Shown piece by piece: positions 267 through 5,078 of a stretch of DNA of 54,449 bases. The notes beneath the pieces are model-generated. The model had not been told where the DNA came from and searched no databases. It worked only from the letters and a program-made list of their open reading frames with translations. Both the position numbers and the translations under genes were made by a program. This DNA comes from Candidatus Kapaibacterium sp. Lineage in GTDB: Bacteria > Bacteroidota > Ignavibacteria > Kapaibacteriales > UBA4661. Location: positions 1 through 54,449 of the forward strand of contig RDXM01000094.1 in assembly GCA_004292595.1 (NCBI GenBank). The letters are read 5' to 3'. Positions within the stretch are counted from its first letter, which is position 1. Each line of letters opens with the position of its first letter.

Positions 267-779
267 ATGATACGAGCCTATAAAAATCACATCTTATTTC
301 ATGGAATAGCATTAACAGTTTTTTTTGCTTGTTTTTCTGCATACGCTTTTACATCCTCGAAAGTTGGATTTCCTTTTGCAAACAAACTTATAGGAGTATT
401 CCAATCTGTCTGTGCTATCGGTCTAATACTTATCTTTTCACATAAAGCCTGCCAAGGTATTCTCAACAATATGAAAGGCTTATATGACGGTATTGCTAGT
501 GATAATAGCTTGCTCTCTAAAAATTTTGCAGTCCTCATCGTCATTGCCTGTATCGTAATCACAGTTATTCATTTGACCTATATTTCATCTTACATTCAAT
601 TCACAAACCACTCTGATAATCTTCATGTTGAAAAACTACTATACCTCTTTACAATCGTTGGTTCGTCAGTAGGAATTCTGATAAATTGGCTGCTATTATC
701 AGCATTATCGTATCTATTGGCAACAGCTCTTGACATTCATCACGATATGATTTTTAATAAAACTATACAGAAGTATTAA
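267..779 (+). pseudogene. membrane protein, Yip1-like, probable 5' part of a gene split by the IS607 element
   Basis: The 170-residue frame is strongly hydrophobic with about four membrane segments (roughly residues 9-27, 40-57, 88-112 and 127-152). It stops at a TAA only a few bases before the transposon begins. The segment downstream of the transposon (2648-3001) continues with further membrane helices, ends in an ATGA overlap with a SpoIIM-like gene, and has no convincing start of its own. Together the two halves would give a protein of about 290 residues with the helix pattern of Yip1-domain proteins, which are known neighbours of SpoIIM-type genes. The Yip1 assignment is from hydrophobic pattern, not a search. 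It remains possible that this is a complete short membrane protein. The ATG at 267 has no strong ribosome-binding site. Confidence 0.5.
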
Positions 780-785
780 AATTCT

Positions 786-2000
786 TTATGCAAAAGTAAT
801 CTTCTGCACGGGCAGAACCGCACTGCCTCTATCGAGTAGTTCTTTGACAAAAACATCCCCGACTACCTTTCGTGCTATGCCGATAGCACCATTCACATCG
901 GCGTTCAGTAATGTGCCGACCGAAGATTGGAACAAACCACGTTTGACACGCTTACCTTTGTACTGCTCTTGCTTTTGCAATGGCTCAAAGGCTAAGTGGT
1001 CTATCTTTGAGGTGTAGCTTTCTTCGGTACATTCCAAGCGGATGCCGACGTGTTCGAGTTTGTAGCGAAGCTGGCGAATAAACGTATCAAACGGCACACT
1101 GACAAAGTTTTGATTGGTCTTGTCGCCTAGATTGATATTCTGTTTCCAATCGGGATTCTTGCCGATAATCACCGTGCCGATGCGGTGTTCAAGGCAATAT
1201 GTCCGAATGTACGCACTACACTTGTGAATATAATCTTGCACTTTGCAGTTCCGTTTGAGCGTCAAACGCTGTACACGCTTTGATGTTCCACGATTACCGA
1301 CTGCACTCATCGCTGTTGCACGAGCTTTGTTGAAAAATTGATTGATGGATTTGAGCGGCTTGCCGTTGAGAACGAAAGGCTTCGCGCCTACGTTGCTGAT
1401 ACACGTAGCAAAATTGCTTAATCCGCAATCAATCGAAAGAACATTTGAGGCTTCAACATCGGCTTGCACATCCGGCTTTTCATAGAGAATTTCGACCACA
1501 AAACACGTTGCTTGTGGTACAATACGCACTTGTTGATGCTTGCTTACGGCGGTTTTGACGGGCAAAAGAGCCGCCTTTTTTGCAAAGGTAAGAATGCCAT
1601 TTTTGATGGTGGATTGTTGATTGGTGAAGACCGCAAGCGACACGCCGTCTTTGTCTTTGTAGCGTGGCAAACGCGGACGAGCCTTGTATTTCTCAGGATG
1701 CTGACCGTACTCTTTGAGCGAGGCAAAAAAGCCGTTCCATGCTTGCCGAACCTGCATCACGACTTGTTGCGCTACGTGTGGCGGTAAGGCGATGTAGTCC
1801 ACCTGACGCTCACGGCTTAATTGATTGATAAGGTCAAACTGCGACGGTAGTTTTTCTTTGGCAATAAAGGTTTGGCGCAGAATGTAGTTTGCCACGTTGT
1901 ACAGATTCTTGCACAAATGGCATAACACCTCAGCGCGTTTGGCTTGCTTCGAGCCAAAGCGGATAATATGACGCTCAACCAGCATCATCGGCAATTTCAA
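786..2000 (-). CDS. tnpB: TnpB, RNA-guided nuclease/transposase accessory protein of IS607 element
   Basis: 404 residues with the TnpB plan: an N-terminal wedge/RNA-binding part (residues 1-170) and a split RuvC nuclease. The first RuvC aspartate is D191 in LSIDCGLSNF and the last is D368 in LLNADVNGA. The middle motif reads VIIGKN (278-283), with G where most TnpBs have glutamate; a candidate replacement glutamate is E326 or E327 in TEESYTSK. No CxxC zinc-finger pair is present between residues 290 and 370, where many TnpBs have one. Known TnpBs use an omega RNA from the element's end to cut the empty donor site and help retain the transposon. The gene overlaps tnpA by 26 bases, so the pair is probably co-translated. 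The start at 2000 could instead be either Met at residues 5-6. Confidence 0.92.
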   Translation of the reverse strand: MKLPMMLVERHIIRFGSKQAKRAEVLCHLCKNLYNVANYILRQTFIAKEKLPSQFDLINQLSRERQVDYIALPPHVAQQVVMQVRQAWNGFFASLKEYGQHPEKYKARPRLPRYKDKDGVSLAVFTNQQSTIKNGILTFAKKAALLPVKTAVSKHQQVRIVPQATCFVVEILYEKPDVQADVEASNVLSIDCGLSNFATCISNVGAKPFVLNGKPLKSINQFFNKARATAMSAVGNRGTSKRVQRLTLKRNCKVQDYIHKCSAYIRTYCLEHRIGTVIIGKNPDWKQNINLGDKTNQNFVSVPFDTFIRQLRYKLEHVGIRLECTEESYTSKIDHLAFEPLQKQEQYKGKRVKRGLFQSSVGTLLNADVNGAIGIARKVVGDVFVKELLDRGSAVLPVQKITFA

Positions 2001-2583
2001 CAGTGCAGAGTTCTTGAACCAGTTTTTTACGGCGACCGTTGTAGAGTTTCATCGAATAGCAATGCAAGAGCGAGACGATTTCTTCAAAGATTTCTTGCGC
2101 ATCTAGTTTTTCAGAACCGACTTCTGAAATTACCACGATTTCTGTTCCAAACTTCCGAAACAAGTGCGCAAACAATTCAAATCCGATACGGCTTAGACGG
2201 TCTTTGTAGGTGATAACGACTTTGGCAACTTTATAGGCAAGCACTTCATCCAGCAAGGTAAAAAAATCAGTGCGCTTGCTGAAGGAAATACCACTGGCGA
2301 CATCTTGGTACACCGCATGAATACGCCATCCGTTTTGAAAGCAAAATTGTTTGAGCAATTCTACTTGCACGGCAAGGTCTTTCTTTTGGTTTGCTGTTGA
2401 AACTCTGGCATAGACAATGATATTACGCGGGATATTTTTATTTAAGAGCGCATAGACCGAATCAGCATCGTAGCGATAATGACCGCTTGGCAGTACGGTA
2501 AACTTGATAGTTCCTTGTTTGCAGTATTGCGACAAGGTTGGGCGTGAAATACGCAGTAATTGAAGGACTTCCTTTGCTTTCAT
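1975..2583 (-). CDS. tnpA: IS607-family serine recombinase (transposase)
   Basis: 202 residues. The N-terminus (1-48) is a MerR-like winged helix beginning with a helix-turn-helix (LLRISRPTLSQYCKQG). It is followed by a small serine-recombinase catalytic domain with the nucleophile S62 in YARVSTANQKKDL and the conserved downstream ITYKDRLSR segment. This DNA-binding-first order distinguishes IS607 TnpA from resolvases. It moves the element through a circular intermediate without target duplication. It is intact and full length, so the element may still be mobile. The ATG at 2583 is preceded on the minus strand by A/T-rich sequence, probably the transposon promoter. Confidence 0.93.
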   Translation of the reverse strand: MKAKEVLQLLRISRPTLSQYCKQGTIKFTVLPSGHYRYDADSVYALLNKNIPRNIIVYARVSTANQKKDLAVQVELLKQFCFQNGWRIHAVYQDVASGISFSKRTDFFTLLDEVLAYKVAKVVITYKDRLSRIGFELFAHLFRKFGTEIVVISEVGSEKLDAQEIFEEIVSLLHCYSMKLYNGRRKKLVQELCTVEIADDAG

Positions 2584-2647
2584 GCTTGTTTTCCAAAATT
2601 AAACAAGCGCGAAAATACAAAAAATATGCAAAAAACGAATAGATTAA

Positions 2648-3001
2648 ATCATTTTATGCAGAATATTTCACTACAATTTTAATTTTTATGTCTCTGCGGT
2701 TGGGATAGGGCAGGTAGGAGTGTTTCTTGCGATATTTATTGCACTCCTGATGAGTTTATTTACCTTAGACTCAGTGATGTCTATCTCACATTTTGCTGAA
2801 ATCTCTATAAATTCTTATGAGCGAAATATGATTGGTAAGTTCGGTGAATTTGTTACGCTATTTATTATTTGCTGTTCATTAATGCTCAATGAAAAAATAT
2901 CTTCAAAATATGCCGTAATTATAGCATTTCTGCCAACTCTACTTGTCGGTTTCGTCAGTGAATTTATAAAATTCCTGACCCAAAGTTTATTCTTACAATG
3001 A
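2648..3001 (+). pseudogene. 3' part of the interrupted Yip1-like membrane protein gene
   Basis: The frame is open from just after a TAA at 2645, at the transposon junction, through to TGA at 2999. It encodes three hydrophobic segments (about 2705-2770, 2840-2885 and 2910-2990). The first in-frame start is a GTG at 2720, placed in the middle of the first membrane helix, so the reading frame looks decapitated rather than newly started. The last codons overlap the ATG of the next gene (ATGA at 2998-3001), a classic translational coupling. That suggests this was a functional first gene of a two-gene unit with the SpoIIM-like protein before the transposon inserted. Confidence 0.55.
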
Positions 3002-3540
3002 AAATCTTTAAACGCTTTTTGCAGCTATCAGACCAGCAACAAACATACATCATTTTACTCTGTTTATTAGGAGCATTATTGATAGGGTTATTTTGTGGCA
3101 TAAAATCTTCGGTAAGTGTAAGTAACAGAATACTTTTACGGGCAAGTAGAGATGCTAAGATTGTTGAACGAGCCACTTTCGTAACATTTCAAAAAATAGC
3201 TGTAAACAACCTATTATGCGCTGGTCTATTACTTACGAGTTTTTTTTCTTTTGGCTTAATACCAATTTTGATAATTATTTACAATGGTATCATGATTGGC
3301 TATACCATGAAACTTGGATGCAACCAAATTGGTGTTTTGCCCACTTTAGCATTAGTCTTGCCGCATGGTGTCGTAGAAATGACAGCAATTTTATTTGCTG
3401 CATTTTTAGGAATGCGCATATCCATTGCTTTCATGGAGTTTTTACAGTCCGATATGGAAAACAAACGTTTTTTTTCGATGTTGTTCAGCCAAAAAAAATA
3501 TTCTTCTACTGGGATTAATACTTATTGCCGCCTTAATTGA
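2998..3540 (+). CDS. stage II sporulation protein M-like (SpoIIM/DUF95) membrane protein, apparent frameshift
   Basis: 180 residues as read. It shows the SpoIIM/DUF95 pattern: a first membrane helix, a helical linker, then NNLLCAGLLLTSF, a glycine-rich IIYNGIMIGY segment and LPHGVVEMTAILFAAFLG. Outside sporeformers the family is uncharacterised and is often paired with Yip1-like proteins, as seen here. The printed frame loses its hydrophobic C-terminus at a run of eight A (3491-3498). Reading one base on continues LLLGLILIAALIESFVTP to a TAA at 3587-3589, which is the expected final helix and tail. The intact gene would therefore be about 2998-3589. The extra A could be a sequencing error, a real mutation or a slippage site. 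Confidence 0.75.
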   Translation: MKIFKRFLQLSDQQQTYIILLCLLGALLIGLFCGIKSSVSVSNRILLRASRDAKIVERATFVTFQKIAVNNLLCAGLLLTSFFSFGLIPILIIIYNGIMIGYTMKLGCNQIGVLPTLALVLPHGVVEMTAILFAAFLGMRISIAFMEFLQSDMENKRFFSMLFSQKKYSSTGINTYCRLN

Positions 3541-3569
3541 ATCTTTTGTTACACCATACATTTACGACT

Positions 3570-4298
3570 ATGTTCTGCATTCAGTTTAAGTTTTCCGTAC
3601 TCTATTCTCATATCGTTATACCGCACCATTTCTATCTCCGTTGTTTGGTATTCCTATCCATTATATTTCTTGCTACACCAAGCATATACGCTGCTTTGGG
3701 CGACGGCACAGATAGCACCAAAACTGACTCCACACAACTGCGAATGTATCAATACTTGGGCGCAAGTTCTATGCTCACAACGGCACATCGCGCACTCGGC
3801 ATCCCGCCAGAGTTTGCCGCGCAGTTCGGAGATGCGCCGCTTGTGAGTGTTGGTTTTTATGGCGTGTGGGTGGGAGATTTACTCTTTAAAACGAGCAAAC
3901 TCCGCACGGCTGCTAGCTTTGAGAAAATACTTAATGCTTATCCGTCATCGCGCATATTTGAAAACTGGCGTTTTATGGCACAGTTTGGCTACTATGTCGC
4001 TGAACAAGAGAGTAATAAACCTAAAGGACTGAAAGCCTATCCTTTCCTTGGGTATAGCTGGAATTTATACTACATAGACAATAGTGTTCGTATGAGCATT
4101 CTTTCTGTGGACGGCGGGGCGGGCGCTGACTGGTTTATCCCCCAAACCCCAGTGCTGGTCGGCGTTCAAGCCTCCTACAATCACAGTTGGAATCTTAGTG
4201 CTGCAAAGGAAGTAGTAAATAATGTAAGTGGTTTGTCTATTAAAGCACACATCGCAATTTTTATTTTTGAGAAAAAAAATCCTTTCGGCTGGAACTAA
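3570..4298 (+). CDS. secreted protein of unknown function, first of two tandem paralogues
   Basis: 242 residues from the ATG at 3570 (a TTG at 3537 is less likely). A hydrophobic stretch ending in PSIYA-ALGDG gives a signal peptide with cleavage after about residue 43, a long n-region. The mature part begins with a Ser/Thr/Asp-rich segment (TDSTKTDSTQLRMYQYLG). It then has alternating hydrophobic and aromatic strands (SVGFYGVWVGDLLF, FMAQFGYYV, SVDGGAGADWFIPQTP) suggesting a small beta-rich envelope protein, and ends with a charged Lys stretch and W-N. It is closely related to the gene at 4416. I do not recognise the family. Confidence 0.75.
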   Translation: MFCIQFKFSVLYSHIVIPHHFYLRCLVFLSIIFLATPSIYAALGDGTDSTKTDSTQLRMYQYLGASSMLTTAHRALGIPPEFAAQFGDAPLVSVGFYGVWVGDLLFKTSKLRTAASFEKILNAYPSSRIFENWRFMAQFGYYVAEQESNKPKGLKAYPFLGYSWNLYYIDNSVRMSILSVDGGAGADWFIPQTPVLVGVQASYNHSWNLSAAKEVVNNVSGLSIKAHIAIFIFEKKNPFGWN

Positions 4299-4415
4299 GG
4301 AAAGACAAACATCAAAACGGCTCGTTTTGAAAAAATGACATCCACCTGAAAGAAATTCCTCGCTCACGTGTCATTCCAGAAATCCCGTTTTTACTCATTT
4401 CTTTTTGAACACAAT

Positions 4416-5078
4416 ATGCGCTTGTTCCTTTATTTCTGGATAATAGCAATCGTGCTACCATCAAGCATATACGCTGCTTTGGGCGAAGGTACAGACAGCA
4501 CCAAAACTGACTCCACACAACTGAGAATGTATCAATACTTGGGCGCAAGTTCCACGCTTACAACGGCACATCGCGCACTCGGCATCCCGCCAGAGTTTGC
4601 CGCGCAGTTCGGAGACGCACCGCTTGTGAGTGTTGGTTTTTATGGCGTGTGGGTGGGAGATTTACTCTTTAAAACCAACAAACTCCGCACCTCGTTTGGC
4701 ATTGAGAAATTCCTGAATGCCTATCCTTCACCGCGTATTTTGGAAAATATTCGTTTTCCAATCCAGTTTGGCTACTACGTTTTCGAGCAGGAAACCACGC
4801 GCAAAGGGCTGAAAGCCTATCCTTTTCTTGGTTTTTCCTCAAGCATCTACTTCGTGGATAACGGTGTTCGCATGAATATTATTTCTGTGGACGGCGGCGC
4901 AGGTGCAGACTGGTTTATTCCTCAAACGCCGCTTCTCGTCGGCATTCAAGCCTCGTACAATCATAGTTGGAATCTTCGCGCGGCGCAGGATGTGGCGAAT
5001 AATGTGGGCGGCGTGTGTGTGAAAGCGCAGATTTCTATTTTTATTCGGGAGAAGAAGAATTTTTGGGGATGGGATTAA
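4416..5078 (+). CDS. secreted protein of unknown function, second tandem paralogue
   Basis: 220 residues from the ATG at 4416. A GTG at 4368 would add 16 residues ahead of an already complete signal peptide (MRLFLYFWIIAIVLPSSIYA), so the ATG is preferred. The mature protein matches the preceding gene almost residue for residue from ALGEGTDSTKTDSTQLRMYQ through GVWVGDLLFKT, then diverges moderately (for example EQETTRKGLKAYPFLGF) and converges again at SVDGGAGADWFIPQTP. It arose by tandem duplication. Both copies are intact, so both are probably used. Their position ahead of a TonB receptor suggests a surface or periplasmic role, but function is unknown. Confidence 0.78.
   Translation: MRLFLYFWIIAIVLPSSIYAALGEGTDSTKTDSTQLRMYQYLGASSTLTTAHRALGIPPEFAAQFGDAPLVSVGFYGVWVGDLLFKTNKLRTSFGIEKFLNAYPSPRILENIRFPIQFGYYVFEQETTRKGLKAYPFLGFSSSIYFVDNGVRMNIISVDGGAGADWFIPQTPLLVGIQASYNHSWNLRAAQDVANNVGGVCVKAQISIFIREKKNFWGWD

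What the first reader, a model, noticed from the sequence alone, without database searches (positions are those of the whole stretch)
777..2000. TnpB with displaced RuvC-II glutamate, no zinc finger, and omega RNA that must lie inside the gene
D191 and D368 are intact but the usual RuvC-II Glu position is VIIGKN; E326/E327 in TEESYTSK is the likely substitute, and no CxxC pair exists. The tnpB stop is only about ten bases from the inferred element end, so any guide scaffold would come almost entirely from the 3' coding sequence, with the guide read from the disrupted host gene (minus strand, from about 776 downward). Rearranged TnpB active sites have been described for a subgroup; this one is intact and sits at an identifiable target.
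Basis: partly seen in the sequence, partly recalled or inferred. Interest (0 to 1): 0.6.

Follow-up and report, generated by a model that had tools for sequence, protein, structure and literature searches.

The report
IS607 transposon with relocated-glutamate TnpB
This is an intact bacterial jumping gene of a well-known family whose RNA-guided DNA-cutting enzyme appears to use a relocated active-site residue shared by its lineage, and whose guide RNA is written mostly into the end of the enzyme's own gene; it is a clean example of something already described.

Summary
The window holds one intact IS607 element (744-2672, minus strand; tnpA 1975-2583, tnpB 786-2000). A same-genus genome carries the uninterrupted host gene, which maps the ends exactly: precise insertion at an AC/GT dinucleotide. 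The active-site observation holds. D191 and D368 are present; the canonical RuvC-II Glu position is Gly280 in 157 of 157 aligned proteins; none has a CxxC between residues 326 and 371. E327, rather than E326, is the likely substitute: Glu in 155 of 157 against 126 of 157, and aligned with the E of E-x6-C in zinc-finger TnpBs. This is the published Ealt / RuvC-II-rearranged arrangement (PMC10711439, PMC10278001) and it runs through the lineage sampled. The stated element end is wrong: 42 nt, not about ten, follow the stop, and the guide starts at 741, not 776. The putative guide scaffold (about 870-744) is still two-thirds coding; SL1 and SL2 lie in the last codons and covary. A covariance model finds that core at the tnpB 3' end in 150 of 163 loci at E up to 1, 115 of them at E up to 0.01. 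Transcription and cleavage are inferred. New member of a known kind.

The parts
744..2672 (-). IS607 element, 1929 bp between the exchanged dinucleotides
   Evidence: empty site in same-genus genome G005; right end shared with two other copies in the same genome
742..743 (.). core dinucleotide AC (GT on the minus strand) at the right end
   Evidence: GT precedes different DNA in all three right ends
2673..2674 (.). core dinucleotide AC (GT on the minus strand) at the left end
1975..2583 (-). tnpA, IS607 serine recombinase with N-terminal HTH, 202 aa
   Evidence: Resolvase and HTH_17; transpos_IS607 178.2 bits, cut-off 110
786..2000 (-). tnpB frame, 404 aa from TTG at 2000; ATG at 1988 is the likelier start
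1428..1430 (-). codon D191 (RuvC-I)
   Evidence: Asp in 156 of 157 rows
1161..1163 (-). codon G280, the place of the canonical RuvC-II Glu by the alignment (N282 by the profile match to ISDra2)
   Evidence: Gly in 157 of 157 rows
1020..1022 (-). codon E327, proposed catalytic glutamate (Ealt)
   Evidence: Glu in 155 of 157 rows; aligned with E of E-x6-CxxC in four haloarchaeal TnpBs
897..899 (-). codon D368 (RuvC-III, NADVN)
   Evidence: Asp in 156 of 157 rows, one gap
744..870 (-). putative guide-RNA (omega/re RNA) scaffold, 127 nt; its 5' limit is inferred
   Evidence: fold; covariation of SL1 and SL2; model R1
832..862 (-). SL1, inside the coding sequence
   Evidence: outer stem 98.4% and 96.0% paired, inner hairpin 68.5% and 53-57%
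811..827 (-). SL2, inside the coding sequence
   Evidence: 92.3% and 87.9% paired
788..809 (-). SL3, runs into the first base of the stop codon
   Evidence: fold of the window and of two same-genome copies
749..784 (-). SL4, 3' stem-loop in the non-coding tail
   Evidence: fold; one A-U to G-C double change in L003, with one pair lost and others shifted
722..741 (-). expected guide, read from host DNA (20 nt shown; length inferred)
   Evidence: position follows from the mapped right end; 721-743 is identical in the empty site of G005
2675..2680 (-). host DNA beside the left end (AAAATT on the minus strand), place of the expected TAM
   Evidence: the TAM itself is inferred
2584..2672 (-). left end, non-coding, upstream of tnpA
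267..743 (+). first part of the interrupted host gene
   Evidence: 87% identical protein in G005, where both parts lie in one 271-codon frame
2675..3001 (+). second part of the interrupted host gene
   Evidence: 86% identical protein in G005 (query began at 2693)

Best explanation
A complete IS607 transposon. TnpA (serine recombinase) moves it as double-stranded DNA by exchange at a matching GT dinucleotide. TnpB is a RuvC nuclease whose third catalytic carboxylate is most likely E327, just after the fifth RuvC strand, in place of the canonical position now held by glycine; the zinc finger between RuvC-II and RuvC-III is gone. The 3' part of the tnpB transcript (about 870-744) is the guide scaffold: four hairpins, two within the coding sequence, one reaching into the stop codon and one in the 42-nt tail. 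Read-through into host DNA supplies the guide (741 downward). The complex should bind and cut sites without the element (AAAATT-GT-GATGAATGTC... on the minus strand), favouring retention of the transposon. Shown here: anatomy, element ends, residue conservation, RNA covariation. Inferred from the family: transcription, processing, metal binding by E327, cleavage, retention.
For: IS607 TnpA and TnpB families. Exact empty site with no target duplication. D191, E327, D368 conserved while the canonical Glu position is Gly. E327 aligns with E of E-x6-CxxC, the Ealt position of PMC10711439 (sections read; passages). AlphaFold2 model with mean pLDDT 93.0 in which 326/327 follow strand 321-325 and D368 lies in a helix beginning at 367; best solved matches are Cas12f, TnpB and a Fanzor2, e.g. 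ISDra2 TnpB 8exa Z 21.8, rmsd 4.6, 321 aligned. Covariation of SL1 and SL2 in two sets. Scaffold core at the tnpB 3' end in 150 of 163 loci. One RuvC-II-rearranged ortholog (RII-r5) is an active nuclease in print (PMC10278001, section 14).
Against: No RNA, protein or cleavage data for this element. Metal-site distances were not measured. L023/L024 have Lys at 327 (with Glu at 326). Of the measures, the number of pairs with a change on both sides was reached by 45 and 73 of 500 shuffles, so that measure alone is not telling; the inner SL1 hairpin is irregular. The 19 sequences of the second set had been located with the model built from the first. Only 32 of 165 loci have an IS607-type TnpA by the window's TnpA at E up to 1e-8 in the DNA held, and one relative has an IS200/IS605 TnpA, so the TnpB lineage is not tied to IS607. 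In PMC10278001 only one of the RuvC-II-rearranged orthologs is reported active.
Confidence: 0.82

Rival explanations
1. TnpB keeps guide and target binding but does not cut: a nuclease-dead regulator or roadblock, like TldR.
For: The canonical RuvC-II Glu is absent and the zinc finger is lost. Some orthologs that process their RNA showed no activity in a dsDNA screen (PMC10278001, section 14).
Against: D191, E327 and D368 are kept almost without exception across the sampled lineage, and the gene sits next to tnpA in a clean insertion, unlike a domesticated regulator (TldR known here from the search listing and recall).
Confidence: 0.1
2. A residue other than E327 supplies the third carboxylate: E326, or a residue near the canonical place.
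For: E326 is Glu in 126 of 157 rows and is the one kept in L023/L024. The profile match to ISDra2 places the canonical Glu at N282, which is Asn in 156 of 157, so that position too is under constraint.
Against: E327 is more conserved (155 of 157) and lies at the published Ealt spacing.
Confidence: 0.1
3. A decaying element: intact by eye but no longer expressed or active.
For: Only one copy of its kind is complete in this genome; one further right-end copy has shifted frames (L002). A third (L003) is cut by a contig end and cannot be judged.
Against: Both frames are open, conserved residues and paired scaffold are kept, and the empty site in a same-genus genome suggests an insertion after the two parted.
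Confidence: 0.05

Closest known systems
IS607 of Helicobacter pylori (founding element of the family) and its TnpB
   Same: TnpA/TnpB order and overlap; TnpB 48.9% identical over 99% of the query; TEES.TSK and GKN in place of the canonical Glu, no zinc finger; same SL1-SL2 core at the tnpB 3' end
   Different: Exchange dinucleotide GG there (PMC6188088, passages), GT here
Ealt / RuvC-II-rearranged TnpBs (PMC10711439; RII-r3 and RII-r5 of PMC10278001)
   Same: Canonical RuvC-II Glu absent; Glu six residues before the place of the first zinc-finger Cys
   Different: Zinc finger lost, so the E-x6-CxxC search pattern quoted in PMC10711439 (passages) would not find it; which RII-r clade it belongs to was not tested
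ISDra2 TnpB (PMC8612924, passages)
   Same: reRNA there is the 3' end of tnpB plus the right end, with a guide from flanking host DNA; similar fold (8exa, Z 21.8)
   Different: IS200/IS605 element; canonical RuvC-II Glu (recalled)
ISFba1 / RAGATH-18 IS607 TnpBs (PMC11061315, passages)
   Same: IS607 element; similar fold (8iaz, Z 22.2)
   Different: There the reRNA lies wholly outside tnpB and the active site is D194, E290, D371; here the scaffold overlaps tnpB and no RAGATH-18 match was listed
Fanzors (PMC10432273 and PMC11423790, passages; 9b0l, Z 18.8)
   Same: Glutamate on the loop after the fifth RuvC strand
   Different: Eukaryotic; keep the zinc finger; DPG motif, where this protein has DCG

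Membership tests
IS607 family transposon | Serine-recombinase TnpA with N-terminal DNA-binding domain | tested here: met
   transpos_IS607 178.2 bits, cut-off 110; HTH_17 at 2-50, Resolvase at 55-190
IS607 family transposon | Insertion at a matching dinucleotide without target duplication | tested here: met
   empty against occupied site; GT rather than the GG of H. pylori IS607
IS607 family transposon | No terminal inverted repeats | not tested
   no repeat search of the ends was run
TnpB | TnpB family profile and RuvC/TNB fold | tested here: met
   guided_TnpB 162.4 bits, cut-off 100; Pfam; fold match to TnpB and Cas12f
TnpB | RNA-guided nuclease activity | not testable with these tools
   needs a bench assay
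Ealt / RuvC-II-rearranged TnpB | No Glu at the canonical RuvC-II position | tested here: met
   Gly280 in 157 of 157; also no Glu if the place is N282
Ealt / RuvC-II-rearranged TnpB | Glu six residues before the first zinc-finger Cys | tested here: met
   by alignment to zinc-finger TnpBs only, as this protein has no such Cys
Ealt / RuvC-II-rearranged TnpB | That Glu reaches the metal site | not testable with these tools
Pro-Fanzor (PMC10711439) | DPG motif in RuvC-I | tested here: not met
   DCG at 191-193
TldR (nuclease-dead TnpB) | Loss of RuvC catalytic residues | tested here: not met
   D191, E327, D368 kept; definition recalled
RAGATH-18 IS607 TnpB | RAGATH-18 RNA downstream of and separate from tnpB | tested here: not met
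   not among the four matches listed for 600-2800 at E up to 5; conserved core lies inside tnpB

The most novel reading that the evidence does not exclude
In a zinc-finger-less Ealt lineage sampled from Campylobacterota, Bacteroidota, Cyanobacteria, Asgard archaea and viral contigs, one guide-RNA core, not matched by Rfam in the sequences tried, is kept inside the last codons of tnpB; and copies that have lost the protein, such as L002 and L179 in this genome and free-standing ones near tnpB in several viral contigs, are kept as separate guide RNAs that serve an intact TnpB in trans.
Probability: 0.15. Interest if true: 0.55.

Novelty: new member of a known kind. Interest (0 to 1): 0.3.

Why it matters
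It is a fully mapped IS607 TnpB locus of the rearranged, zinc-finger-less sort: exact ends, an empty target in a same-genus genome, the expected guide and the place of the TAM. The covariation inside coding sequence indicates that the last codons of tnpB are selected as RNA as well as protein in this lineage, so a guide model for it should include the 3' coding sequence. In the one survey read here that assayed rearranged TnpBs (PMC10278001), a single RuvC-II-rearranged ortholog was reported active, so a ready-made test case is useful.

Tried and rejected
Considered and rejected: (1) Element end at about 776: refuted by two same-genome right ends and by the empty site. (2) RAGATH-18 or another Rfam guide RNA: four sub-threshold matches in 600-2800, one of them (sau-31, 24.7 bits against a gathering score of 50, E 0.68) over the tail 739-790; no gathering-level match in ten loci. 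(3) E326 as the catalytic residue: less conserved than E327, though it is the one kept in L023/L024. (4) Guides of the other right-end copies aimed elsewhere in this genome: the 16-mer of L002 matched only its own locus; that of L003 matched its own locus and, with one mismatch, the right end of L002 (up to one mismatch). (5) Measuring the metal site on the model: not possible. (6) phmmer of the single protein against solved structures: nothing at E 0.001; profiles found Cas12f and TnpB. (7) genome-contig scan with the single protein: no relative; repeated with an alignment, as the cap allows.

Limits of the counts. The relatives are the best 80 of 263 and the best 80 of 458, found by conserved peptides, plus L005-L007, L009 and L010: 165 loci; 156 proteins of 330-480 aa were aligned with the window (157 rows), near-identical ones included; 126 rows remain after their removal. 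The fold used 93 relatives, a hand-picked part of the 130 left. The 150 of 163 counts R1 hits at E up to 1 within the last 120 nt of the called frame; 115 have E up to 0.01 by my count of the tables; 11 of the 150 helped to build R1, which leaves 139 of 152. L007 and L009 were left out (frame on the minus strand of the locus). Of the 13 misses, six have a hit beyond the end of the called frame (L039, L090, L104, L111, L128, L145) and seven have no hit (L040, L054, L088, L097, L113, L117, L151). One hit in mid-gene (L031 2241-2294, E 0.5) is probably chance. The scan of the own genome scored 150 of 1891 first-look candidates, so it may have missed copies.

Full report
1. What is there. The first 3.0 kb of the window contain a host gene interrupted by an IS607 element. 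On the minus strand lie tnpA (1975-2583, 202 aa; transpos_IS607 178.2 bits, cut-off 110) and tnpB (786-2000, 404 aa; guided_TnpB 162.4 bits, cut-off 100). The tnpB frame opens with TTG at 2000; the four relatives begin at the residue aligned with M5, so ATG at 1988 is the likelier start.

2. Element ends. The genome holds two further sequences like the right end, C133:7015-7150 and C4:58308-58405, the second at a contig end. All three agree up to TCATATCGT and then differ. A same-genus genome (G005) has both halves of the host gene in one 271-codon frame. Its DNA, aligned to each window flank, reads ...CATC-AC-AATTTT..., against ...CATC-AC|GATATG... and ...TTTCACT|AC-AATTTT... in the window. 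The element is therefore 744-2672, 1929 bp, with one AC (GT on the minus strand) at each junction and no target duplication. IS607 elements typically recombine at matching dinucleotides (PMC10711439, Results part 1); H. pylori IS607 uses GG (PMC6188088, passages).

3. Active site. The residue numbers in the finding are right. Relatives came from viral contigs (best 80 of 263), genome contigs (best 80 of 458) and five further loci; of 165, 156 were aligned with the window. Asp at 191: 156 of 157. Asp at 368: 156 of 157, one gap. Gly at 280: 157 of 157. Glu at 327: 155 of 157. Glu at 326: 126 of 157. No CxxC within 326-371: 157 of 157. Among 126 rows left after removing near-identical ones, Glu327 is found in 125 and none lacks both glutamates; the exception is L024, Lys at 327 and Glu at 326. 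The selection is of close relatives, so these numbers describe this lineage, not TnpB as a whole.

4. Anchor to known TnpBs. Four haloarchaeal TnpBs with a CxxC...CxxC zinc finger align so that their Glu, six residues before the first Cys, sits on E327; at 280-282 three have GDL and one GKL. That is the alternative glutamate (Ealt) of PMC10711439 (Results part 1; passages), whose authors find Ealt proteins split into a D-hydrophobic-G and a DPG clade. The window has DCG, so it is not a pro-Fanzor. PMC10278001 (sections 7, 13, 14) calls clades with such changes RuvC-II-rearranged (RII-r3, RII-r5) and reports one active RII-r5 ortholog. The profile match to ISDra2 TnpB puts the canonical Glu at N282 rather than G280; either way there is no Glu. 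The large survey behind those clade names (recalled as Altae-Tran et al., PNAS 2023) is not held and was not read.

5. Structure. AlphaFold2 on 94 sequences gave mean pLDDT 93.0, with two blocks of ten residues (281-300) at 67 and 55. Best solved matches by VIA-align: Cas12f 9i8y Z 22.7, ISFba1 TnpB 8iaz 22.2, ISDra2 TnpB 8exa 21.8, mimivirus Fanzor2 9b0l 18.8, with rmsd 4.6 to 5.3 (Foldseek). E326 and E327 follow strand 321-325 and D368 lies in a helix beginning at 367. A Fanzor paper describes the RuvC glutamate on the loop between the fifth strand and the TNB domain, which it calls the classic pattern (PMC11423790, passages); in SpuFz1 E541, D383, N385 and D606 bind two magnesium ions (PMC10432273, passages). 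Distances could not be measured, so the geometry here is inferred.

6. Guide RNA. The minus strand 880-742 folds into four hairpins. SL1 and SL2 are within coding sequence, SL3 reaches the first base of the stop codon, SL4 is in the tail and ends five bases before the right end. On 13 sequences aligned by MAFFT, helices drawn from the window fold and inspection give 87.2% paired cells, 52 double changes and a covariation score of 0.579; the best slid versions reach 52.5%, 17 and 0.165. On a second set, the window plus 19 sequences not used for the model though located with it, the values are 79.3%, 77 and 0.568 against at most 52.6%, 29 and 0.198. In both sets no shuffle reached those three values; the number of pairs with a change on both sides was reached by 45 and by 73 of 500 shuffles. 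SL1 outer stem (98.4%, 96.0% paired) and SL2 (92.3%, 87.9%) carry the signal; the inner SL1 hairpin is weaker (68.5%, and 53 to 57%).

7. How widespread. Covariance model R1 finds the core in the last 120 nt of the called tnpB frame in 150 of 163 loci at E up to 1, 115 of them at E up to 0.01; without the 11 loci used to build it, 139 of 152. In L039 the hit lies about 70 nt beyond the stop instead. Overlap of guide RNA and tnpB is known for ISDra2 (PMC8612924, passages), whereas ISFba1-type elements have theirs outside the gene (PMC11061315, passages). Nine paper searches showed me no description of this lineage's own RNA; PMC10278001 has a covariance model for 'Derived' TnpBs with two 5' stem-loops and a 3' stem-loop, which may well be related, and I could not compare them.

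8. Other copies. In this genome R1 also hits the second IS607 element (C53, E 0.002), C133 (E 9e-10), C12:78-133 (E 0.056) and C4 (E 4.8 there; 30.6 bits as a cut match). In L002 (C133) the TnpB-like codons change frame within the scaffold and no TnpB similarity was found upstream; the inner SL1 stem GTTTTT/AAGAAC is GTTGTG/TACAAC there, still paired. L179 (C12) has stops in its TnpB-like frame and TTCTC/GAGAT where L010 has TTCCC/GGGAT; its minimum-energy fold nevertheless does not show that stem. L003 (C4) is open as far as the contig end and may be a complete copy cut by the assembly. Inheritance from other active elements explains these as well as present function does.

9. Mechanism. From established knowledge of the family: the transcript that runs out of the element is processed into scaffold plus host-derived guide, and the complex cuts sites that lack the element. 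The expected target is the empty site; window 721-743 is unchanged in G005. None of these steps is shown for this element.

10. Host. The nearest named relative by genus is a Candidatus Kapaibacterium MAG: the G001 locus L009 shares all 4181 40-mers with L100.

11. Verdict. The active-site observation is right and runs through the lineage; the boundary claim is wrong by about 34 bases; the idea that the scaffold lies mainly in the gene is right for about two thirds of it (85 of 127 nt). New member of a known kind, a clean test case.

Noticed in passing
L002 1501-1631 (C133), L179 78-133 (C12), L003 1501-1598 (C4, contig end): Further right-end / guide-RNA copies in the window's genome; L002 and L179 no longer code for TnpB, L003 is cut by the contig end.
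   Followed up: partly
L045 1704-1750, L057 1829-1880, L087 1748-1800, L044 1408-1462, L051 973-1027; L039 3300-3361: R1 hits outside the tnpB frame: five upstream of tnpB, possibly free-standing guide RNAs or ends of neighbouring elements, and one downstream of the stop.
   Followed up: partly
L010 929-2724 (own genome, contig C53): A second IS607 element in the same genome, TnpB 46% identical to the window's, with the same missing canonical Glu and TEESYTSK.
   Followed up: partly
window 787-795, 2625-2633, 2655-2663 (minus strand): TTNTGCATA occurs at both element ends, once over the end of tnpB: possible TnpA-binding motif. Seven in the window against 2.76 expected; 1 of 100 shuffles reached seven.
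   Followed up: partly
window 3537-4298 and 4368-5078: Two neighbouring similar frames (GTDSTKTDSTQLRMYQYLGASS...), apparently a tandem duplication.
   Followed up: no
window 739-790 (minus strand): Sub-threshold Rfam match to Staphylococcus sRNA sau-31 (24.7 bits, gathering 50, E 0.68) over the right-end tail; probably chance.
   Followed up: no
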